Assembly (NCBI GenBank): GCA_014801585.1
Contig: JAAVDX010000021.1
Span: 1 to 64,000 of the forward strand
Source: Bacteroides sp.
GTDB lineage: Bacteria; Bacteroidota; Bacteroidia; Bacteroidales; Muribaculaceae
DNA: 64,000 nt
Direction: 5' to 3'
In this document: positions 8,521 to 36,106 of the stretch, in pieces
Layout: every line of letters begins with the position of its first letter
How positions within the stretch are numbered: position 1 is the first letter of the stretch
Position numbers and translations under genes: made by a program
Notes under the pieces: generated by a model
Told to the model about the DNA's origin: nothing
The model's database searches: none
The model's input: the letters and a program-made list of their open reading frames with translations, nothing else

Positions 8521-9896
8521 TCACATCAATCATCCATAGAATAGTAACCCTGCTGGGAGTATTGCTCTTCGGAGCGATACTCCCCGCTTCGTATGCCGCC
8601 GGGACGCAGCAACCGTCGGCCGAGATTCACTCCGAAACAACCGACCGACCGGCTACGGCCGACTCTACCGACTACACTCCGGGACGATCACGACTGACAG
8701 CGAGTCTGCTGACATGCAGTCCGGGAGCGGAGGTCTATGAGCTTTTCGGCCATGAGGCAATACGCATCCGCGGCATCGATGAGAAGGGTCTGCCGGTAGA
8801 TACCGTATGGAATTACGGTGTCTTTGACTTTGCGGCTCCAAATTTCCTCTACCGATTCGTGAAGGGGGAGACAGACTATATGGTCGAGCCTTGCCCGATG
8901 GATTGGTTTATGGCAGCGTATATCCATCGCGGAACGGGGGTGACAGAACAGGACCTCAACCTTTCGCAGCAGGAGACCTATACCCTGCGCCGACTGCTAC
9001 AGATCAACTCACTTCCGCAAAACCGCACCTACCGCTACAATTATGTGCGCGACAACTGCGCCACACGCATAGTAGATATGATAGATGCGGCGGTGGCTCC
9101 GCGTAAGGTCGTATTTCCTGACACGATCTATTACCCGACATTCCGCACCGCAATGCGCGAATTTCATAAGGACTATCCGTGGTATCAGTTTGGGATTGAT
9201 CTGGTGTTGGGAGGTGGACTTGACGTGGCGGTGACTACCCGCGAGGAACTCTTCGCTCCGCTTCTGCTTGAACAGAAAGCTGCGTTCGCACGTTTTGAGG
9301 ATGGCGCTCCGCTTGTCAGCAATACACATATCCTCTATCCCGGGCCGCTGACGGCAGTGAGCGATCAGCAGATGATGGAGCGGCTTGCCACGCAGGCTCC
9401 CGACTTGCCCACGCTGCGGCAGATGGGACACACGCTCGCTCCGACCACTTGGATACTGTCGCCTATGTGTGTGGCAATCATTCTGATGCTGGGGAGTTTC
9501 TGGATCGGATGGTGGCAATTCCGCAACGCCCGCATTATCCGCTGGGCATACGCTCTCTTCTTCACCTTATTAGGACTGGCGGGGTGTGTGGTATGGTTTC
9601 TCGTATTCTGTTCGAGCCACGACTCCACTTCTCCCAATCTGCTATCGCTCTGGCTCAATCCGATACAGTTGGCAGTCGCATTGTTTATCTGGTGGGACCG
9701 CACACGGGGTATAGCCGTAGCAATGGCAGCCGTCGACGTGATCATCATGATAATGCTGATTGCGGCGTGGCCTTTGCAGACGCAGGTAGCCAATCCGGCC
9801 GTATTTCCGCTATGGGCGGCCACGCTTACTCTCTCATTCTCACTCGTCATGGTAGAGATCATCAACCGACGTAAAATAGCAAACGCAACGAAATGA
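8517..9896 (+). CDS. lnb: DUF4105 membrane protein, Lnb-type lipoprotein N-acyltransferase
   Basis: A 459-residue protein with an N-terminal signal-anchor (about 8-27), a periplasmic DUF4105 domain (about 55-310) and four hydrophobic helices at the C-terminus. DUF4105 proteins of Bacteroides have been described as Lnb, which adds the third acyl chain to lipoproteins in organisms that lack Lnt. Conserved residues are visible: [29 protein letters not shown], and [11 protein letters not shown] with its Cys. The start is a TTG at 8517 that overlaps the asnS stop (TTGA). No in-frame ATG precedes the signal segment, so I accept it. The stop overlaps the next ATG by 4 nt. The family is clear; the acyltransferase role rests on published homologues as I recall them. 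Confidence 0.82.
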
Positions 9897-20469: not shown

Positions 20470-21738
20470 ATGCTACTTTACGATCTCGGAATCTATCTCT
20501 ATCGTCAGGGAATCCGAATTGCAGCCCATACATCCCGCCACGCCAAGCCCCGACTTCTCAACGAGGGGCTCGGCGAGGTATGGGATCGTCTGCTCCCGCT
20601 GAAAAGCGGTGAAGGTCGCAATGTATGGATTCACGTCGCTTCATTGGGAGAGTTTGAGCAGGGCCGACCCCTGATCGAACGTCTGAAGCGCGAACATCCC
20701 GAACTGCGCATCATTCTTACCTTCTTCTCCCCTTCCGGCTATGAGGTAAGAAAGAATTACAAGGAGGCCGATATCGTGGCTTACCTCCCGATAGATACTC
20801 CGCGCAATGTCAGCAGATTTCTGGATATCGTCAGGCCTGAGATGGCAATCTTCGTGAAATATGAGTTCTGGCTCAATTATCTGAAGGAGTTACGCCGACG
20901 CGAGATTCCGACCTATCTCATCAGCGGCATTTTCCGCCCGGATCAACTCTTCTTCAAGTCGTATGGCGGTTTCTACCGCAATGCGCTCCGTACATTCCGC
21001 CGACTCTACGTGCAGGATGAACGCAGCCGCCGACTGCTTGACGGAATCGGCATTACTGACGTGACGGTCGCCGGCGACACTCGTTTCGACCGTGTGACCG
21101 ATATTATGCGCGGAGTCAAACCCCATCGCATACTCGACCTCTTCTGTAAAGCTCCCGGCGATGAGCGTCTGACATTTCTCGCCGGCAGCTCCTGGCCGGA
21201 GGATGAGGCAGTCTACGCGGAATGGCTGAGGGAGTCAGGGGATTCAGTCAAAGGTGTGATTGCGCCGCATGAATTCGATGCCGAGCGTCTGAAGCGATTG
21301 CTCGGACTATTCGGAGATAAGGCTGTGCTGATGAGCGAGGCAGAAGGAAATCCTGAACTGTTGGAGGGGAAACAGGTTCTTATAATCGATTGTTTCGGGT
21401 TGCTTGCTTCGGCCTATTCCTATGCCGACATAGCCTATGTAGGAGGTGGATTCGGAGCCGGACTCCACAACATCAACGAAGCCGCCGTCTATGGCATACC
21501 GGTCTTTTACGGCCCGAACCATTCGAAATTCATCGAAGCGGAGGAGATGAAAACGCAAGGGGGTGGCATTGCGATCAATTCCAAAGAGGAATTCCGCGAG
21601 AAAGCCGACCGACTCCTTGCCGACCCCTCCGAACGCAAGGCGCTCGGCCAACGCTCCGCAACCTACATCCGCTCCAAACTCGGAGCGACCGACATAATCT
21701 ACTCCGACCTATTTGCGACCACTGCGAATATGAGATAG
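20470..21738 (+). CDS. waaA: 3-deoxy-D-manno-octulosonic acid (Kdo) transferase
   Basis: A 422-residue GT30 enzyme that adds Kdo from CMP-Kdo to the lipid A precursor at the inner membrane. An N-terminal membrane-associated helix precedes the GT-B fold. Conserved blocks are WIHVASLGEFEQGRPLI (contains the catalytic Glu, about 60), FFSPSGYEVRKNY, VKYEFWLNYL, and in the C-terminal domain LAGSSWPEDE and YVGGGFGAGLHNINEAAVYGIPV. Length is normal. It shows that the organism makes lipid A with at least one Kdo. It is followed by a hairpin and then by the first copy of the 88-bp repeat that bounds the accessory segment. Confidence 0.96.
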   Translation: MLLYDLGIYLYRQGIRIAAHTSRHAKPRLLNEGLGEVWDRLLPLKSGEGRNVWIHVASLGEFEQGRPLIERLKREHPELRIILTFFSPSGYEVRKNYKEADIVAYLPIDTPRNVSRFLDIVRPEMAIFVKYEFWLNYLKELRRREIPTYLISGIFRPDQLFFKSYGGFYRNALRTFRRLYVQDERSRRLLDGIGITDVTVAGDTRFDRVTDIMRGVKPHRILDLFCKAPGDERLTFLAGSSWPEDEAVYAEWLRESGDSVKGVIAPHEFDAERLKRLLGLFGDKAVLMSEAEGNPELLEGKQVLIIDCFGLLASAYSYADIAYVGGGFGAGLHNINEAAVYGIPVFYGPNHSKFIEAEEMKTQGGGIAINSKEEFREKADRLLADPSERKALGQRSATYIRSKLGATDIIYSDLFATTANMR

Positions 21739-21784
21739 AATCTACCGCCTCTATTCTAAAACATAAGGATACAGGCGGTAGATT
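21739..21784 (+). terminator. Hairpin after waaA (copy 1 of an island-linked hairpin)
   Basis: AATCTACCGCCT (21739-21750) pairs perfectly with AGGCGGTAGATT (21773-21784), loop 22 nt. The 47-bp unit is aligned without gaps to 25792-25838, with about eight differences, many of them in the loop. It abuts the 88-bp repeat directly. Confidence 0.75.
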
Positions 21785-21785
21785 A

Positions 21786-21873
21786 ATTATACACAAGGGT
21801 CAGAAAGTATTGAAACGTTAGACTCACATAATCCGTAAAAACTCAGAGAAATAATCGATTAATGGTATGACGG
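21786..21873 (+). repeat. 88-bp direct repeat, left copy (gene scar)
   Basis: Identical to 26991-27078 except for G21869 versus A27074. In the right copy the first 36 bp encode the last 11 residues and stop of an LRR protein (IIHKGQKVLKR). Here the same codons stand without a gene in front. The left copy is thus the 3' remnant of a gene that was deleted, or the boundary of a duplicated or inserted segment. Confidence 0.92.
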
Positions 21874-21894
21874 ATCTGATTTATTACCTTTTAA

Positions 21895-21926
21895 TTTGCT
21901 TTTACAGATATTTTAAATTACATTTG
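21895..21926 (+). promoter_or_regulatory. Promoter for the first LRR gene
   Basis: TTTG at 21895-21898, spacer 20 nt, TACATTTG at 21919-21926. Transcription would start near 21933 and give a leader of about 200 nt. The leader holds a 7-bp hairpin (22043-22049 with 22059-22065) and repeated CTATTATAC words. Core and following bases (CATTTGCACT) resemble the promoter of the paralogue at 34787-34818. Confidence 0.8.
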
Positions 21927-22132
21927 CACTCGAAAAGTAGTGTCACTTATTCTTCACAATTCTGCACTCTTTTTTCATTATAATTTCTAACACCTCAACA
22001 CCTCTGTATATTCGTAATGATTCCCATCTTATACAGTCTATTATACGGAGATTAATATTCCGTATTCTATTATACAGGATGGAGAAGTTGTATATAACAA
22101 GAAAATTATAAAACATTAATATTGCATCAATT

Positions 22133-23209
22133 ATGAGAACTCTAAATTATGGCAGATGGATTCAATATGTTTCCGTTCTCATACTCCTATTTCTCGTGGA
22201 AATGCCTGTCGTTGCTGAGACTGTAGTCATTGAACATGAGGCGAGGGTGTTCCAACACGAAGGACTGACTTATAAAGTAATAGATCCTTATGCCAAACCT
22301 CTCAAGCTCGCCCTTATTGACGTAAGAGAGGATTTACGGGGTAATATAGTAATTCCTGAAGAGTTATATATTACAACTACATTACGGCTTGACAAAGAAC
22401 CCGTAAGAGCAATAGTTGTTAGAATCGCTGATAATTTCTTAGCCAATTGGAATGAGAAAAATAAAAATGCTGAAGCAACTTTTCTTATCAAATTTGATTT
22501 ACCCTCCACTGTGAGAAGTATTGGTGACAACGCATTCGCAAGTTGGGATCGAGTGAATAGAATTATACTCAAAGAAGGATTAGAAAATATAGGAGCTTTC
22601 GCATTTAAGAATTCAGAGTTATGGGATATAACGATTCCGGAGTCTGTAATATACCTCGGATACGGATGCTTCCAGGACTCAAGAAATCTAAGAAAAATCA
22701 TTCTCCCTTCAACTTTAAAAGCATTAGGCGGAAACGTTTTCTCATATACTATACTTGAGGATATTTATTGCTATGCTGCAACACCACCTATTGCCGACGA
22801 ATCCGATTTCGGATTGGATGAATCTTTAAGTCTATATCTTCCCTTAGAAACCAAGCGGGTTGACTTCGCAAGGTGTAGAATTCACGTACCTGCGGAGTCG
22901 GTCGAACTCTACAAAAATGCTCCGGGATGGGAAATATTCTTCAATATCGTTCCGCTTACTGATGAGGATATTCTTTCCTCAACGGAGAGAATTGAGGAGT
23001 CATTAGCTACCGCCGGCAATATTGACTATACGGTAAATGACGGGAACCTAACCGTAGCAACTCATGCAGGAGATAAATTGACCGTATATGACACCAACGG
23101 AATTTGCTTGCAACAGGCATCTTTCGCTTCCGATGATACTTTCTCCTACAAAGGCTCAGGCATAGTAATACTTTACGTCAACAATAACAGCGTAACAGTT
23201 GCCCTGTAA
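22133..23209 (+). CDS. Secreted BspA-like leucine-rich-repeat protein with putative T9SS tail
   Basis: A 358-residue protein with a signal peptide (about 1-30, ending VVAE). The middle has LRR_5/BspA-type repeats of about 23 residues: STVRSIGDNAFASW, GLENIGAFAFKNS, ESVIYLGYGCFQDS, STLKALGGNVFSY. A segment with the FARCRIHVPAESVELYKNAPGW motif ends the repeat domain. The last ~65 residues (KLTVYDTNGICLQ...GSGIVILYVNNNSVTVAL) resemble a type A type IX secretion C-terminal signal. BspA-like proteins often bind host or bacterial surfaces; the ligand here is unknown. It is a full-length paralogue of the protein at 34900-35955 and differs from the LRR protein at 25851 in its tail type. Confidence 0.82.
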   Translation: MRTLNYGRWIQYVSVLILLFLVEMPVVAETVVIEHEARVFQHEGLTYKVIDPYAKPLKLALIDVREDLRGNIVIPEELYITTTLRLDKEPVRAIVVRIADNFLANWNEKNKNAEATFLIKFDLPSTVRSIGDNAFASWDRVNRIILKEGLENIGAFAFKNSELWDITIPESVIYLGYGCFQDSRNLRKIILPSTLKALGGNVFSYTILEDIYCYAATPPIADESDFGLDESLSLYLPLETKRVDFARCRIHVPAESVELYKNAPGWEIFFNIVPLTDEDILSSTERIEESLATAGNIDYTVNDGNLTVATHAGDKLTVYDTNGICLQQASFASDDTFSYKGSGIVILYVNNNSVTVAL

Positions 23210-23326
23210 GATCATCTCAACAAGAAATGTAAAACCTTTCTAATTGAAGATATACTTCAAAGTTCACCATTTATATTAGATCATTCTCTATTTCTTCTAT
23301 TTTTTTGGGATATTGTTTAAATTTTG

Positions 23327-23357
23327 TTTGGATAATCATATAATTTGATTATCTTTG
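23327..23357 (+). promoter_or_regulatory. Promoter for the C25 protease gene
   Basis: TTTG at 23327-23330, spacer 19 nt, TATCTTTG at 23350-23357. The start codon follows 35 nt later, so the leader is short. The protease has its own promoter and need not depend on the upstream LRR gene. Confidence 0.82.
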
Positions 23358-23392
23358 CATTCGATATCATTTTTTAACTAAACCTCATTTAT

Positions 23393-25783
23393 ATGAAACG
23401 CTTATTGTTCATCCTATTAATTTTGCCTTTCGTTGCGCTATGCTACGGGAAGGTAAAACACATGGGTTACAGTGAATCCGGAATTGTGATTGAATACGAC
23501 TTTTCTGATTTCACTTCAACTCCGGATCCTGCAGATCCCAGTCTTTCACACTTCATAGTTCAAGGATGCTCGATCATGAAAGGTGAGGGGCTACCTGCAC
23601 TCCCATTCAAAGGGGAAAGTTTCGAAATTCCTAAGGGGATTACTCTTGGCGAAATCCAGATTGAGGAAATTACCGACACCATAATAGGCAAATGTGCGCC
23701 GGCTAGATTATTTTATTCAGACAGCGAACCTATTCCTACAACAAATGAAAATAATATTATTCCCTATGACGGAATATGGCCATCGACTTCGGCTTGTCTT
23801 GGAGAAACTGGGACATATAGAGACCGGCAGATAGGTAAAGTAATTATCTATCCGGTTCGTTATGATTATAATAACGAAATGGCAGTAGTTAGTAAACGTC
23901 TTAAAATAACAATCCCTTTTATTAACTCTCCAGTCACATATAATTTATCGGAAGATGAATCTGAACATTCTTTACCCAAAGATATGTTTTCCGCGTATTG
24001 TCCTCTAAATCTTCAAGTATCTAATGAAGTCACTCCAGTGGGTTCTGCTTATCAACCTCCGGTATTACTTCCAACTTTGATGATGGTTACACCTAAAAGA
24101 TTTGAAGAACCTATAAGAACATTTGCTAAATGGAAACAGCGAATGGGGTACTCCGTATATATTGAAGTAGTATCTGACGAATCTAAACTTTTAGATCCTA
24201 ATTATACCAAATCTCTTATTACAAACAGATACAAAACTGACAAGAATCTCGAGTATGTACTTCTCGTGGGAGGTGGAGATATTATCCGGCCTTGTGAGGG
24301 GAAATATACCGTAAAGTTTGACAATGTTACAAATCCAAGAAAAGTTTATACAGATTTTTATTTTTGTTGTATGGATGGAGATAATGACTTTACTCCAGAT
24401 TTGGTAATTGGCAGATTCCCCGCTCATAATGTTGAGGATTTAAATGCTATGATTTCTAAAACCATGCACTATGAAAAGAATCCTCCCGTTTCATATCCCA
24501 ATTTTTATCAAACAGGCATTCATATTGGCGAATGGGAGGACCAAGCAAAATCAACTGGTAAAGCTGGCTTCGAAAGACGTAATTTTATATGGACATCCGA
24601 ATGGTTCCGTAACCAATTAATTACAAATTTTGGATTAGACGTAAAAAGACTATATTACAAATATTCCACGGCGACTCCTACTCATTACGCTAATGGAATC
24701 GGCCTTACACAAGATTTAAAGGATTACTTCTTAACTAATAATCTTACCACCTCACAAATCAATGGCGCCATAAATACAGGGGCTCTTTATATCCTTGCAA
24801 GGTGCCACGGAGGTGTAAGCGTTTGGACTAACCTCGGATATAACGAGAATTACGTTCGAAATCTTATAAACTTAAACAGACTTTCATTTGTATATGCCGT
24901 CAATTGCAACTCTGGAATAATCTACAATCCTGAAATTAAAGCGGAACAAAGTAGATACATAGATTATTCACTTTGTGAAGAATTCTTACGTAATAATCAT
25001 GGTGGTGCGGTATGCGCGCTGGGTGCCAATGGGGAATCAGATAGTGATTACAACGATTTCTTAGCAGCTGCAATCTTCAATGCCACCTATGTCAATAGTG
25101 CCTTAGGATTTGAAATACCCAATGCATTAGATTTTATGAATCAATTTGGCTTATTTTCTGAGTTCGGCAAAATATGTCAGGCGGCTATAGAAAATATGGT
25201 AGTTCAAGCGGACGGATATTCCGTAATTGGAAAGCGATTTGACCAAGCAAGGTATAATCGAGAATGCTATAATTGCTTGGGAGATCCCACTGTAAGATTC
25301 AATATATCTGCCCCAATTATAAAAGATGCGGAACATTTAAGAACAGAAAATAATGAGGCAAGATTAGATCCGCGCATGATAGTGGATGCAAGATTAGATC
25401 AATTAACCTTTGGTTATTCTAATCTTGCTTTATGGGGTCCTGAATTTCTTGGGAAGGATGCTGATGGCAATGAACGAGACTTGACCGGGTATTCTCTGAT
25501 TGGTGATGGTTATGTTCCCATACTATTAGAAGAATATCAAGAATCTCATTCATTATCAAAACCTATCATATCCTCAATTAAAGGAGATGATTCAAATATT
25601 TTTATTAACCTCACTGGACCAACAACAAATACCTACGTATGCTTATATGACATATACGGGAATAGGGTTAATATAACTGAGGTTTCGAATGAATCTATGA
25701 TAGTTCCCAAACCAAATGGGATGAGCATTATTACCCTTGAAAAGGATGGAGTCATTTTAGACTCTGCTAAACTTCATAAATAA
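23393..25783 (+). CDS. Gingipain-family (C25) secreted cysteine protease
   Basis: A 796-residue exported protease. Signal peptide (1-19, LCYG), a propeptide-like region (about 20-210), then the C25 catalytic domain beginning LLPTLMMVTPKRFEEPIRTFAKWKQRMGY. The catalytic pair is visible: H472 in ARCHGGVSVW and C505 in VNCNSG, 33 residues apart, the same spacing as His211/Cys244 of Arg-gingipain. An Ig-like or beta region follows, and the C-terminal ~65 residues (YVCLYDIYGNRV ... GMSIITLEKDGVILDSAKLHK) look like a type IX secretion signal. PorU also contains C25 but is longer and lacks a secretion tail, so I prefer a secreted effector. Arg or Lys specificity cannot be read from sequence. Confidence 0.88.
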   Translation: MKRLLFILLILPFVALCYGKVKHMGYSESGIVIEYDFSDFTSTPDPADPSLSHFIVQGCSIMKGEGLPALPFKGESFEIPKGITLGEIQIEEITDTIIGKCAPARLFYSDSEPIPTTNENNIIPYDGIWPSTSACLGETGTYRDRQIGKVIIYPVRYDYNNEMAVVSKRLKITIPFINSPVTYNLSEDESEHSLPKDMFSAYCPLNLQVSNEVTPVGSAYQPPVLLPTLMMVTPKRFEEPIRTFAKWKQRMGYSVYIEVVSDESKLLDPNYTKSLITNRYKTDKNLEYVLLVGGGDIIRPCEGKYTVKFDNVTNPRKVYTDFYFCCMDGDNDFTPDLVIGRFPAHNVEDLNAMISKTMHYEKNPPVSYPNFYQTGIHIGEWEDQAKSTGKAGFERRNFIWTSEWFRNQLITNFGLDVKRLYYKYSTATPTHYANGIGLTQDLKDYFLTNNLTTSQINGAINTGALYILARCHGGVSVWTNLGYNENYVRNLINLNRLSFVYAVNCNSGIIYNPEIKAEQSRYIDYSLCEEFLRNNHGGAVCALGANGESDSDYNDFLAAAIFNATYVNSALGFEIPNALDFMNQFGLFSEFGKICQAAIENMVVQADGYSVIGKRFDQARYNRECYNCLGDPTVRFNISAPIIKDAEHLRTENNEARLDPRMIVDARLDQLTFGYSNLALWGPEFLGKDADGNERDLTGYSLIGDGYVPILLEEYQESHSLSKPIISSIKGDDSNIFINLTGPTTNTYVCLYDIYGNRVNITEVSNESMIVPKPNGMSIITLEKDGVILDSAKLHK

Positions 25784-25791
25784 AACTAATA

Positions 25792-25837
25792 AATCTATCG
25801 CCTTTATTCTAAAACGCTTAGATAAAGGCGGTAGATT
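25792..25837 (+). terminator. Hairpin between the protease and second LRR genes (copy 2)
   Basis: A 16-bp stem with one G-U pair: AATCTATCGCCTTTAT (25792-25807) with ATAAAGGCGGTAGATT (25822-25837), followed by AAAATC. It begins 9 nt after the protease stop and ends 13 nt before the next ATG. It likely terminates or attenuates read-through, because no separate promoter for the next gene is evident. Confidence 0.75.
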
Positions 25838-25850
25838 AAAATCAACATAC

Positions 25851-27026
25851 ATGAAACAAAAATTATTTATAACACTTAGCATCCTTTGTTCCGCTATGGC
25901 TATTTATGCAGAGGAGAATAATAGCGACCGTACATGGTGGGATAAAGACAATTGTCTGTTAGACGGGGAATGCTATTATATAGAAGAGGATGTAGTGTAT
26001 GATCCTTGGACAAAAACGGAATATCGCCTCGATGACTGGATTGAATTTTATGGCGAGTACGGTGCAGGCATTAAGTATGGATTTCATATAGAGAACAAGG
26101 ACAGATTGGAAGTCTCCATAACTGCACCTTTCGTAGCTCATGCCACTGAACCGGACAACTTTGTAGAGAAACATATTATTCTCCCGGATAGAGTTGAACA
26201 TAATGGGAAAACCTATTCGGTAACAGCTATTCAGAATAGTCCTGCCTTTAGAGCAAACCGGATAGAACTGCCTTCTTCCATCAGATATATCAGTTCGAAT
26301 AATTATTCCACTAATGAGGAAGATTCAGAATATTCCATATATGATAGATGTAAGGCAGAGTTCATCTTTAACGAGGGTCTTGAGACAATTATGGATAACG
26401 TATTCTTCCGTGCGGATATTTCCTCGCTTAAATTACCGGGGTCATTGCGGTCGATTGGTAGCGATTTCGCGGGGAAATGTCGAAATCTTGAGTCTGTGGA
26501 TTTTAACGAAGGCCTGATTTCTATCGGAGAAAATGCACTCTCAGACTGTCCGAGAATTACAGAAATAGATCTCCCTTCCACTCTGCTCACCTTAGGGCGC
26601 AACTCGTTCAATTCATGCGAAAACCTCGAAAAGCTCCATATCTCACGCTGGATTCGCAACCGCAACGGTTTTGAAGGAATTGCCAACAACTGTCCTAACA
26701 TCAAAGAGATTGTCTACGACAGCAATACTCCCTATCCCGCCGTCAACTCCTTCAATAAGGTCAATAAGGAGGAATGTACCCTCTACGTTCCCTATCGTCG
26801 CGGATATGTATATGCACAGACAGAAGGATGGAAGGAATTCAGAAATATCGTAGAGATGGACGAACTTACCACTGCTCTACATCCTGCTGACGTAGCCCAA
26901 AATGCAAACTCAACTACAGATGAGGATGTCTATACGACCCTTGAAGGTATCCGCTATGAGGAATGGAACGAGATTCCTTCTAACACCATCATTATACACA
27001 AGGGTCAGAAAGTATTGAAACGTTAG
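25851..27026 (+). CDS. Secreted leucine-rich-repeat protein with short sorting tail
   Basis: A 391-residue protein. Signal peptide 1-20 (SILCSAMAIYAE). An N-terminal acidic region of about 90 residues is followed by LRR_5-type repeats (GLETIMDNVFFRA, GSLRSIGSDFAGKC, GLISIGENALSDC, STLLTLGRNSFNSC) and a VPYRRGYVYAQTEGWKEF end motif of the kind found in BspA-like proteins. The tail VYTTLEGIRYEEWNEIPSN then IIHKGQKVLKR is like the short type IX-type tails common in Bacteroidales (GiYIinGkKvlvK). The last 11 codons and the stop lie in the 88-bp direct repeat. No promoter is seen, so expression probably depends on read-through past the hairpin at 25792. Confidence 0.82.
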   Translation: MKQKLFITLSILCSAMAIYAEENNSDRTWWDKDNCLLDGECYYIEEDVVYDPWTKTEYRLDDWIEFYGEYGAGIKYGFHIENKDRLEVSITAPFVAHATEPDNFVEKHIILPDRVEHNGKTYSVTAIQNSPAFRANRIELPSSIRYISSNNYSTNEEDSEYSIYDRCKAEFIFNEGLETIMDNVFFRADISSLKLPGSLRSIGSDFAGKCRNLESVDFNEGLISIGENALSDCPRITEIDLPSTLLTLGRNSFNSCENLEKLHISRWIRNRNGFEGIANNCPNIKEIVYDSNTPYPAVNSFNKVNKEECTLYVPYRRGYVYAQTEGWKEFRNIVEMDELTTALHPADVAQNANSTTDEDVYTTLEGIRYEEWNEIPSNTIIIHKGQKVLKR

Positions 27027-27078
27027 ACTCACATAATCCGTAAAAACTCAGAGAAATAATCGATTAATGGTATAACGG
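26991..27078 (+). repeat. 88-bp direct repeat, right copy
   Basis: Covers the final 11 codons and stop of the LRR gene and 52 bp downstream. It is 87/88 identical to 21786-21873 and in the same orientation, 5205 bp apart. Flanking bases diverge at once on both sides. Confidence 0.92.
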
Positions 27079-27110: not shown

Positions 27111-27142
27111 TTTGGAAACGCGGAGAAATTTTTGTAACTTTG
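27111..27142 (+). promoter_or_regulatory. greA promoter
   Basis: TTTG at 27111-27114, spacer 20 nt, TAACTTTG at 27135-27142. Predicted start near 27149, giving a leader of about 145 nt that contains a terminator-like hairpin. Confidence 0.85.
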
Positions 27143-27293: not shown

Positions 27294-27755
27294 ATGGCAT
27301 ACCTCACACAAGAAGGATACGACAAGAAAATGCAGGAACTCGCCGAACTCGAGGCACAGCGTCCCGCCATCAAGGCTGCTATCGCTGAGGCACGCGACAA
27401 AGGCGACCTTTCCGAAAATGCTGAATACGATGCGGCCAAGGAAGCTCAGGGTCTTCTCGAAATGAAGATTGCCAAACTGAAGGAACTCGTAGCCAACGCA
27501 CGCATCATCGACGACTCTCAGCTCAACACCGACGAAGTGCAGCTTCTCAATAAAGTGACTATCAAGAATCTCGCTAACGGAATGGTAGTGACCTACACTA
27601 TCGTCACTGAGAGCGAGGCAAACTTCCGCGAGAACAAACTCGCATCGACCACACCCATCGCAGCCGCTCTGATCGGTCATAAGGTGGGCGACGTAGTCAC
27701 CTGTCAGGTGCCGGTCGGCGAGATGAAGTTTGAAATCATCAAGATCGAAATCTAA
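27294..27755 (+). CDS. greA: Transcription elongation factor GreA
   Basis: A 153-residue Gre factor. It enters the RNA polymerase secondary channel and stimulates cleavage of backtracked RNA. The N-terminal coiled coil holds the tip motif with acidic residues (ARDKGDLSENAEYDAAKEAQ, about 33-52), and the C-terminal FKBP-like domain ends KVGDVVTCQVPVGEMKFEIIKIE. Length is close to the usual 157. It has its own promoter and a long leader with a terminator-like hairpin. A HIT-family gene follows after 13 nt with a strong Shine-Dalgarno, so they form an operon. Confidence 0.97.
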   Translation: MAYLTQEGYDKKMQELAELEAQRPAIKAAIAEARDKGDLSENAEYDAAKEAQGLLEMKIAKLKELVANARIIDDSQLNTDEVQLLNKVTIKNLANGMVVTYTIVTESEANFRENKLASTTPIAAALIGHKVGDVVTCQVPVGEMKFEIIKIEI

Positions 27756-34899: not shown

Positions 34900-35955
34900 A
34901 TGAAAGTAACTACATTATCAAAAAATTGGTTATTCCGAGCAGTGGCTCTAATGTTTGGAATAATCTGCTGCGGTTTCACTTATGCGGCCTCGGTTGAGAT
35001 AGAGAATCCAAAAGTAAGTTATTACGTTGACTATGAGGGAATGACTTTCCAAGTGCTTAATGAAGCTACTGAACCTTTGCATCTTGAGCTCATAGAAGTA
35101 AGCGAAGATGTCAAGGGTGACGTTATTCTCCCTGACGAATTCATAATGACATGGTGGGAAGGGAGTATATTCAAACCGATAAAAGCAGTTATTAAGAGAA
35201 TTGCCGACAACGCATTTGAAAAAGGGTCCCCAAAACAAATCTCTATACCTTCCTCAGTTAAGAGTATAGGTGCATATGCACTTGCTCACGCTCCGAATAA
35301 AGTCACTCTTAATAAAGGTTTGCAATATTTGGGATGCCGTGCATTTATCGGATCATATATATCCTCAATTGATCTTCCCGAATCCCTAATGTATATAGAC
35401 TATGGCTGTTTTATGCACTGCTCATATTTACGCCGTATCTATCTTCCATCTACATTAAAGGCTTTTGCCGGGGCGACATTCAAATGGTGTATACATTTGG
35501 AAGATATCTATTGTGCTGCCTCGGTTCCTCCGGAAGCTGATGATTCAGATTTCGGCTTTGAACCTTTTGTGGGAACTCCGTACTGCCAACTGGAGACTAA
35601 TCCAAATGTAAATAAATATTGCGTGATCCACGTACCGGAGGAATCTATCGAACTATACAAGAACGCTCCGGGTTGGAAAAATTTTGTAACTTTTGTTCCT
35701 CTGACGGAAGCTGATATCATCGCATCCACTCAGCAGATAGAAGAGTCTGCTGCGACGCCGTCTCAAATAGACTATACGACCGACAATGGCCAACTACTCG
35801 TGACGGTCAAGCCCGGTGATAACGTAAGCGTATATGATACAAATGGCTTATGCCTGCAGAAAGCTTCTTACTCCGCACCTGATACTTTCTCTTTCAAAGG
35901 CTCGGGTATCGTGGTCTTACACGTCAACGGAAACAGCGTAAAAGTAGTTTTGTAA
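34900..35955 (+). CDS. Secreted BspA-like LRR protein, paralogue of the 22133 gene
   Basis: A 351-residue protein with signal peptide (about 1-29, ICCGFTYAAS). It aligns over its full length with the protein at 22133-23209: the same N-terminal domain (YEGMTFQVLNEATEPLHLELIEVSED), LRR_5 repeats (SSVKSIGAYALAHA, LMYIDYGCFMHC, STLKAFAGATFKW), the VPEESIELYKNAPGW motif and the T9SS-like tail (VSVYDTNGLCLQ ... VVLHVNGNSVKVVL). Codon use is AT-rich like the island genes. It stands alone, away from the island, with its own promoter and terminator. Surface or secreted location is likely; the ligand is unknown. Confidence 0.84.
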   Translation: MKVTTLSKNWLFRAVALMFGIICCGFTYAASVEIENPKVSYYVDYEGMTFQVLNEATEPLHLELIEVSEDVKGDVILPDEFIMTWWEGSIFKPIKAVIKRIADNAFEKGSPKQISIPSSVKSIGAYALAHAPNKVTLNKGLQYLGCRAFIGSYISSIDLPESLMYIDYGCFMHCSYLRRIYLPSTLKAFAGATFKWCIHLEDIYCAASVPPEADDSDFGFEPFVGTPYCQLETNPNVNKYCVIHVPEESIELYKNAPGWKNFVTFVPLTEADIIASTQQIEESAATPSQIDYTTDNGQLLVTVKPGDNVSVYDTNGLCLQKASYSAPDTFSFKGSGIVVLHVNGNSVKVVL

Positions 35956-36017
35956 ACGAAACTGAGAGATTCATTCTACCCTTATCATCTAAAGAATGCG
36001 GTTGAAGAATCATCGAT

Positions 36018-36064
36018 AAATACAGGGATATGTCTTCAAATGGTGAAGACATATCCCCGTATTT
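36018..36064 (+). terminator. Terminator after the third LRR gene
   Basis: A 20-pair stem with one A/C mismatch, 36018-36038 with 36044-36064, loop AATGG. The outer pairs are A-T, giving A-run and U-run at its ends. Confidence 0.8.
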
Positions 36065-36106
36065 ATGATATTCTGATTTTGAGAACTTTTCCAAAAATCA
36101 GCGCGT

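What the first reader, a model, noticed from the sequence alone, without database searches (positions are those of the whole stretch)
21786..27078. Protease/LRR island bounded by a near-perfect 88-bp direct repeat
Seen: 21786-21873 and 26991-27078 differ at one base, in the same orientation, 5205 bp apart. Between them are three AT-rich genes, all with signal peptides and C-terminal tails of type IX secretion character: LRR, C25 protease, LRR. Neighbouring waaA and greA are GC-richer with CGC/CGT arginines. Inference: a mobile or duplicated secretion module that can be lost by recombination between the repeats; the protease and the flanking LRR proteins may work together on a host or bacterial surface. 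No integrase is present, so the mechanism of arrival is open.
Basis: partly seen in the sequence, partly recalled or inferred. Interest (0 to 1): 0.75.

Follow-up and report, generated by a model that had tools for sequence, protein, structure and literature searches.

The report
Paired surface protease and repeat-protein genes
Between two housekeeping genes this bacterium carries a gene for a gingipain-like protein-cutting enzyme followed directly by a leucine-rich-repeat gene, a pair that two close relatives lack at that spot but that recurs side by side at other places in some related bacteria, so the two proteins likely work together at the cell surface; the DNA repeat that seemed to frame the segment is a second copy of the repeat-protein gene's tail end.

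Summary
The 88-bp direct repeat is real (one mismatch, 5,205 bp apart), but copy 2 is the last 36 nt of the third gene plus 52 nt of its 3' flank. It looks like a local duplication scar, not an attachment site: no further copy was found in the own genome or in 110 other genus genomes. The segment is absent in the two relatives where waaA and greA were seen as direct neighbours. The unit that matters is C25 protease plus the following LRR gene. The three C25 proteins that this C25 finds in its genome all have an LRR gene directly downstream; so do 15 of 21 genus loci and 16 of 23 loci in other genera of the family, against 0 of 25 readable loci outside it. Partners are co-inherited (same nearest neighbour in 15 of 27 pairs; shuffles average 1.0). 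A second pair in the genome sits at another site, empty in 3 relatives, between different direct repeats. The protease model has gingipain prodomain and catalytic folds and an intact Cys/His dyad. Joint surface action, with the LRR protein supplying target binding, is inference. The island's first LRR gene is a stray relative of another pair's partner.

The parts
21739..21786 (+). 48-nt palindrome A directly after the waaA stop; 83% identical to palindrome B
   Evidence: seen in sequence
21786..21873 (+). 88-bp repeat copy 1: orphan copy of the LRR2 gene's 3' end (36 nt coding + 52 nt)
21895..21926 (+). Bacteroidota promoter-like site (TTTG-spacer-TAnnTTTG; motif recalled) before LRR1
22133..23209 (+). 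LRR1, BspA-type LRR protein, 358 aa; groups with the LRR at 34900 and the LRR partner of the own C10 C25
23327..23357 (+). promoter-like site before the C25 gene
23393..25783 (+). C25 gingipain-like protease, 796 aa; H472 and C505 align with RgpB H211/C244
25792..25839 (+). palindrome B, hairpin between C25 and LRR2 (-24.3 kcal/mol for the 67-nt spacer)
25851..27026 (+). LRR2, BspA-type LRR protein, 391 aa, the C25 partner; no promoter-like site of its own
26991..27078 (+). 88-bp repeat copy 2: end of LRR2 plus 52 nt
20470..21738 (+). waaA (Kdo transferase), left neighbour
27294..27755 (+). greA, right neighbour; promoter-like site at 27111-27142

Best explanation
The segment is a stretch absent between waaA and greA in two close relatives, and its core is a gingipain-family C25 protease gene followed directly by a BspA-type LRR gene, a two-gene pair that recurs in at least five genera of the family and likely acts jointly at the cell surface, with the LRR protein likely holding the target and the protease likely cutting it. 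Shown: the linkage and its persistence within one part of the C25 tree, matched family trees, an intact catalytic dyad, gingipain-like prodomain and catalytic folds in the model, and empty sites for two of the genome's three pairs. Inferred: co-transcription (no promoter-like site before LRR2), export by the type IX system that the genome appears to encode (SprA and a PorU-sized C25 found), physical partnership, and target binding by the LRR protein in place of the extra C-terminal modules (SprB, PKD, GEVED in three scanned examples) that longer C25 proteins elsewhere carry in one chain. The 88-bp repeat is probably a local duplication of the LRR2 gene's 3' end placed at the foot of a palindrome, not an integration site. 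LRR1 is a stray partner-type LRR gene without its own protease.
For: The window's C25 finds 3 C25 proteins in its genome, itself included; each has an LRR_5 gene next downstream on the same strand, in a genome with 12 LRR_5 frames (my count). Genus: 15 of 21 loci (window plus the 20 loci). Other genera of the family: 16 of 23 loci (13 of 18, 3 of 5; one search listed 24 such matches, two of them in one locus). Outside the family: 0 of 25 loci with at least 0.6 kb readable behind the C25 gene (28 loci, 3 unreadable). Spacing -35 to 204 nt over 27 pairs. LRR_5 confirmed in 31 of 37 scanned proteins, 5 of which were put in as non-LRR neighbours. C25 and LRR distances agree: Mantel rho 0.52, 0 of 9999 permutations as high; same nearest neighbour in 15 of 27 pairs, shuffled mean 1.0, maximum 7. 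The LRR label needs 4 changes on a 58-row C25 tree against a shuffled mean of 19.6, 0 of 500 as low. Catalytic His and Cys invariant in 16 of 16, aligned to RgpB H211/C244. Model matches RgpB and Kgp catalytic domains (E 5e-23 to 1e-19) and their prodomains (E 1e-9 to 4e-9). Empty sites: waaA-greA in G060 and G089; ftsY site of the C18 pair in G097, G060 and G089. SprA_N in the own genome; a C25 in a 1,185-aa frame consistent with PorU.
Against: No interaction, cleavage or secretion was tested. The C25 class is patchy: at E<=1e-30 it was found in 32 of 397 family genomes (which scored at most two candidates a genome). Pfam's C25 model has 6 matches in the own genome; besides the three pairs and the PorU-sized one, two are not in the printed list and were not looked at. 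Type IX tails are recognised in 5 of 16 C25 and 6 of 37 partner-set proteins (E<=1), not in the window's own. LRR genes also occur without a protease (LRR1, 34900-35955) and stand beside broken C25 genes (L101, L137), so the LRR protein may have a role of its own. 6 of 21 genus loci lack the LRR (L100 and L104 are fragments at contig ends, L095 ends 0.95 kb downstream), as do 7 of 23 other family loci (one runs off its contig). A further 17 more distant or partial C25 loci (L120-L136) have no LRR and L139 has none beside its C25 fragment. Part of the tree agreement reflects shared species history. The origin of the repeat is inferred; the palindromes (8 of 48 differences) and the 88-bp copies (1 of 88) differ in divergence (Fisher p 0.001), so one event does not explain both.
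Confidence: 0.55

Rival explanations
1. The LRR protein is the protease's cognate inhibitor or protective partner, as in protease-potempin gene pairs of Tannerella: it shields the cell from its own or a neighbour's C25 enzyme, and stray LRR copies act as spare protection.
For: In the own genome the three C25 proteins of this class all have an LRR neighbour, while LRR genes occur alone (LRR1, 34900) and stay open beside broken C25 genes (L101, L137). Operons of KLIKK proteases and specific inhibitors are described (PMC7296668, passages). Partner trees match.
Against: The C25 model already has a fold like the gingipain prodomains, which inhibit their enzymes (function recalled; fold). The LRR partners lie downstream and show no lipobox (0 of 27), whereas potempins are small lipoproteins encoded upstream (PMC7296668). 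No inhibition data.
Confidence: 0.22
2. The LRR protein is the dedicated substrate: the C25 enzyme matures or releases its partner LRR adhesin, a private version of what PorU does for type IX cargo.
For: The C25 proteins match the PorU model weakly (16 of 16 at E<=1); pairing is one to one in most loci; BspA is a surface LRR protein (PMC4604654, passages).
Against: PorU score 29.4 bits against a cut-off of 420, 796 aa against frames of about 1,150; the fold is closer to RgpB/Kgp than to PorU. No shared cleavage motif was looked for.
Confidence: 0.15
3. One reading: the island is a mobile or excisable module that moves or is lost by recombination between the 88-bp repeats.
For: 88 bp at 99% identity is enough homology for recombination in principle (recalled); the C18 pair is also bounded by direct repeats (about 0.65 kb, 86-89%).
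Against: Copy 2 is part of LRR2; neither empty site holds a copy and none was found in 110 other genus genomes. The two pairs' repeats are unrelated and the third pair has no flanking direct repeat of 22 nt or more in the region searched. No recombinase; no plasmid or phage match for the C25 protein.
Confidence: 0.12
4. Coincidence of genome growth: LRR and C25 genes are both AT-rich surface genes that collect in the same spots without functional coupling.
For: Partner type changes between C25 clades; LRR genes also stand alone.
Against: Order, strand and tight spacing are kept over large divergence (tree), and partners match between genomes with two or more pairs (own a with G060a, own b with G060b).
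Confidence: 0.06

Closest known systems
Gingipains RgpB / Kgp (peptidase family C25)
   Same: C25 catalytic domain, His/Cys dyad, prodomain and catalytic fold
   Different: no Arg/Lys specificity shown; 13-16% identity in the structure alignments; followed by a separate LRR gene
PorU, type IX sortase
   Same: C25 superfamily, weak profile match
   Different: far below the PorU cut-off, shorter, closer to gingipains in fold
BspA-type LRR proteins (LRR_5; e.g. PcpA 4cp6, B. ovatus 4fs7)
   Same: LRR_5 over residues 179-303; best fold matches
   Different: LRR block preceded by about 150 residues without a Pfam match, and encoded next to a C25 protease
KLIKK protease-potempin operons of Tannerella forsythia (PMC7296668)
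   Same: secreted protease beside a dedicated partner gene
   Different: other protease families; partner is a small lipoprotein encoded upstream
Long C25 proteins elsewhere in the order with fused SprB, PKD or GEVED modules
   Same: C25 plus extra modules
   Different: there the modules are in one chain, here the partner is a separate gene

Membership tests
Peptidase C25 (gingipain family) | C25 catalytic domain with His/Cys dyad | tested here: met
   PF01364 153 bits, cut-off 23; H472/C505 invariant in 16 of 16, aligned to H211/C244
Gingipains | N-terminal prodomain | tested here: met
   model matches RgpB and Kgp prodomains, E 1e-9 to 4e-9; by Pfam PF08126 alone 19.0 bits, below the cut-off of 22
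Gingipains | Arg- or Lys-specific cleavage | not testable with these tools
   no residue of the specificity pocket was placed; part of the catalytic domain is unaligned
Type IX cargo | C-terminal sorting domain | tested here: inconclusive
   not called in the window proteins; TIGR04183 in 5 of 16 C25 and 6 of 37 in the partner set at E<=1; DUF6383 on LRR1 15.3 bits, below cut-off 23.7
PorU sortase | PorU equivalog score | tested here: not met
   29.4 bits against cut-off 420
BspA-type LRR | LRR_5 repeats | tested here: met
   LRR1 77.3 and LRR2 72.8 bits, cut-off 27.7
Integrative or excisable element | recombinase inside | tested here: not met
   LRR, C25 and LRR are the genes found between waaA and greA
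Integrative or excisable element | empty site carries one repeat copy | tested here: not met
   none at the two empty sites; only the own genome among 111 holds the 88-bp sequence, one other genome matches 31 nt
Protease-potempin pair | small lipoprotein inhibitor gene upstream of the protease | tested here: not met
   partner downstream; lipobox pattern in the first 35 residues of 0 of 27

The most novel reading that the evidence does not exclude
A split gingipain system: this bacterial family keeps about thirty divergent two-gene kits in which a gingipain-type protease is teamed with its own co-evolving LRR recogniser and swapped in and out of intergenic sites, so that the LRR protein sets what the protease cuts; other clades of the same protease use a different secreted partner family in the same place.
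Probability: 0.3. Interest if true: 0.75.

Novelty: new variant of a known kind. Interest (0 to 1): 0.55.

Why it matters
Gingipains are best known from one oral pathogen (recalled); here gingipain-like enzymes occur in divergent pairs with dedicated LRR partners at changing chromosomal sites in related bacteria, of which one named record is a Muribaculaceae MAG. If the LRR protein directs or restrains the protease, the family offers about thirty natural protease-partner sets in which to learn how a surface protease chooses targets, and it gives a role to genes now named hypothetical or leucine-rich repeat protein (names).

Tried and rejected
88-bp repeat as attachment site: rejected (copy 2 is LRR2's end; no copy at the empty sites). 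One duplication explaining both repeat pairs: unlikely, since divergence differs. AT-richness as proof of foreign origin: rejected (20 of 22 pairs are AT-richer than their flanks). Three-gene module: rejected in favour of C25-LRR2; LRR1 groups with another pair's partner. Reciprocal empty site for G060's type-a pair: its downstream gene was not found in the own genome, uninformative. Intergenic hairpins as a mark of the pair: of 8 spacers of 40 nt or more, 6 fold into long clean hairpins and 1 into a long imperfect one (no shuffle control), but similar palindromes lie elsewhere in these intergenic regions, so not pursued. Fusion of C25 with an LRR: no LRR match within or beside the C25 frames of the 28 order-level loci. 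C25 protein in plasmids and phages: no match; a 32-nt piece of the repeat in viral contigs: none. A print record of the C25-LRR pair: none seen in the search listings (open-licence PMC papers; listings and starts of abstracts only).

Full report
What is there. The 88-bp repeat is exact except for one base. Copy 2 spans the last 36 nt of the third gene and 52 nt beyond its stop; copy 1 lies outside any likely gene, directly after a 48-nt palindrome that follows the waaA stop. A second palindrome, 83% identical, follows the C25 stop. The two repeat pairs differ in divergence (8 of 48 against 1 of 88; Fisher p 0.001). Promoter-like sites (motif recalled: TTTG-spacer-TAnnTTTG) precede LRR1, C25 and greA, and none lies between C25 and LRR2, so C25 and LRR2 probably form one transcript.

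The empty site. The waaA search of 111 genus genomes matched 56; the loci of 29 relatives and the own one were returned with 1.5 kb of flank or less. greA lay directly behind waaA in two, G060 and G089 (343 and 254 bp between the open frames), relatives with 98.7% and 90.2% identical GreA. Neither gap holds a repeat or an island gene; of the island region only the part just before greA aligns, in G060. Four more were read further: in G029 waaA and greA lie 6.5 kb apart with other genes and no C25 or LRR between; in G097 and G101 waaA has other neighbours, and in G096 the contig ends. The 88-bp sequence was found in no other genome of the genus; one (G067) matches 31 nt of the query.

The pair. 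The window's C25 finds three C25 proteins in its genome (the genome is 79.75% complete); each has an LRR_5 gene next downstream. Pfam's C25 model has six matches there, of which the printed list shows only a PorU-sized one and the C18 one; two beyond the three pairs and the PorU-sized one were not looked at. Among 21 genus loci (window plus 20 loci chosen, fetched) 15 have the LRR gene next, one of them (L101) behind a broken C25; misses are L095, L097, L100, L102, L104 and L105. Among 20 further genus loci, 2 C25 fragments are followed by an LRR gene (L137, L138), while L139 and the 17 more distant or partial C25 loci L120-L136 are not; the distant ones mostly have another kind of secreted protein in that place. 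In other genera of the family 16 of 23 loci have the LRR, from four genera besides the own one by the tables; misses are L150-L153, L158, L238 (runs off its contig) and L239. Outside the family none of 28 loci has an LRR match; in 25 of them at least 0.6 kb behind the C25 gene could be read. 26 of these 28 C25 frames exceed 1,000 aa. Of four such proteins scanned, all have a type IX tail above cut-off and three also SprB, GEVED or PKD modules (proteins 3-6).

Co-inheritance. For 27 pairs (broken C25 genes and the three pairs found last, L235-L237, left out) C25 and LRR tree distances correlate (Spearman 0.52; 0 of 9999 permutations as high), also within the genus alone (14 pairs, 0.54; 5 of 9999). 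Nearest neighbours agree in 15 of 27 (shuffled mean 1.0, maximum 7 in 2000). On a 58-row C25 tree (27 with and 31 without an LRR partner, 6 of the 28 order-level loci among them) the LRR label changes 4 times against 19.6 for shuffles, none of 500 as low. In the protein searches the two best non-self matches of LRR2 and of C25 come from clusters with the same longest contig lengths, 6,876 and 11,196, as expected if they are neighbours. The class is patchy: 32 of 397 family genomes matched at E<=1e-30 (at most two candidates scored a genome).

Turnover of position. The own C18 pair lies between a 761-aa gene and ftsY. In G097, G060 and G089 relatives of these two genes are about 150-190 bp apart with no pair; the other three genomes searched differ upstream or are cut short. 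The C18 pair is bounded by direct repeats of about 0.65 kb (L086 3959-4588 and 8582-9298, 86-89%), pieces of which occur elsewhere in the fetched parts of the genome. The C10 pair has no such frame in the region searched. Direct repeats thus frame two of three pairs, with unrelated sequences.

Protein anatomy. C25: PF01364 at 153 bits; AlphaFold model mean pLDDT 78.9; best solved-structure matches are RgpB and Kgp catalytic domains, then their prodomains, then PorU. LRR2: mean pLDDT 78.6, mostly above 90 over residues 171-330; best matches PcpA and gut-bacterial LRR proteins, at low whole-length TM-scores. The genome encodes SprA and a PorU-sized C25, so a type IX system is probable; tail models did not call the window proteins.

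Mechanism. I read the pair as a surface protease with a separate binding subunit. The steps shown are linkage, co-inheritance, catalytic residues and folds. The steps inferred are export, complex formation and target choice. The inhibitor reading is the strongest rival, because partner-type LRR genes occur alone while the three C25 proteins of this class in the own genome do not.

Taxon. Papers: PMC7296668, PMC5445135 and PMC4604654 were seen as passages only.

Noticed in passing
window 34900-35955: Another AT-rich (0.42 GC) orphan LRR gene that groups with LRR1 and with the LRR partner of the own C10 C25; a 23-nt 96% inverted repeat follows at 36016-36066.
   Followed up: partly
L120-L135: A second C25 clade is mostly followed by a different secreted family (start like 'YLPILEDGKSW'); within L121, L122 and L134 successive genes end in nearly the same tail, as if tails were homogenised within a locus.
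   Followed up: partly
L153:1501-4587: One C25 protein of 1,028 aa has a C-terminal extension weakly like that partner family (36% over 50 aa to the L134 2378-3355 protein): a possible fusion of protease and partner.
   Followed up: partly
L086:3959-4588 and 8582-9298: About 0.65-kb interspersed direct repeats frame the own C18 C25-LRR pair; parts recur at L086 1274-1526, L114 and L119.
   Followed up: partly
L086, L088, L090, L091, L099, L103 and window 25784-25850: Hairpins of unrelated sequence fill the C25-LRR spacer where it is long (of 8 spacers of 40 nt or more, 6 clean, 1 imperfect in L103, none in L162; no shuffle control).
   Followed up: partly
L101, L137: C25 gene broken into pieces while the LRR gene next to it stays open.
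   Followed up: no
L098: LRR-C25-LRR order as in the window, again with an upstream LRR that groups with another pair type.
   Followed up: partly
L109:8500-15031: In G029 other genes, none of them C25 or LRR, lie between waaA and greA, so this spot may take up different inserts.
   Followed up: no
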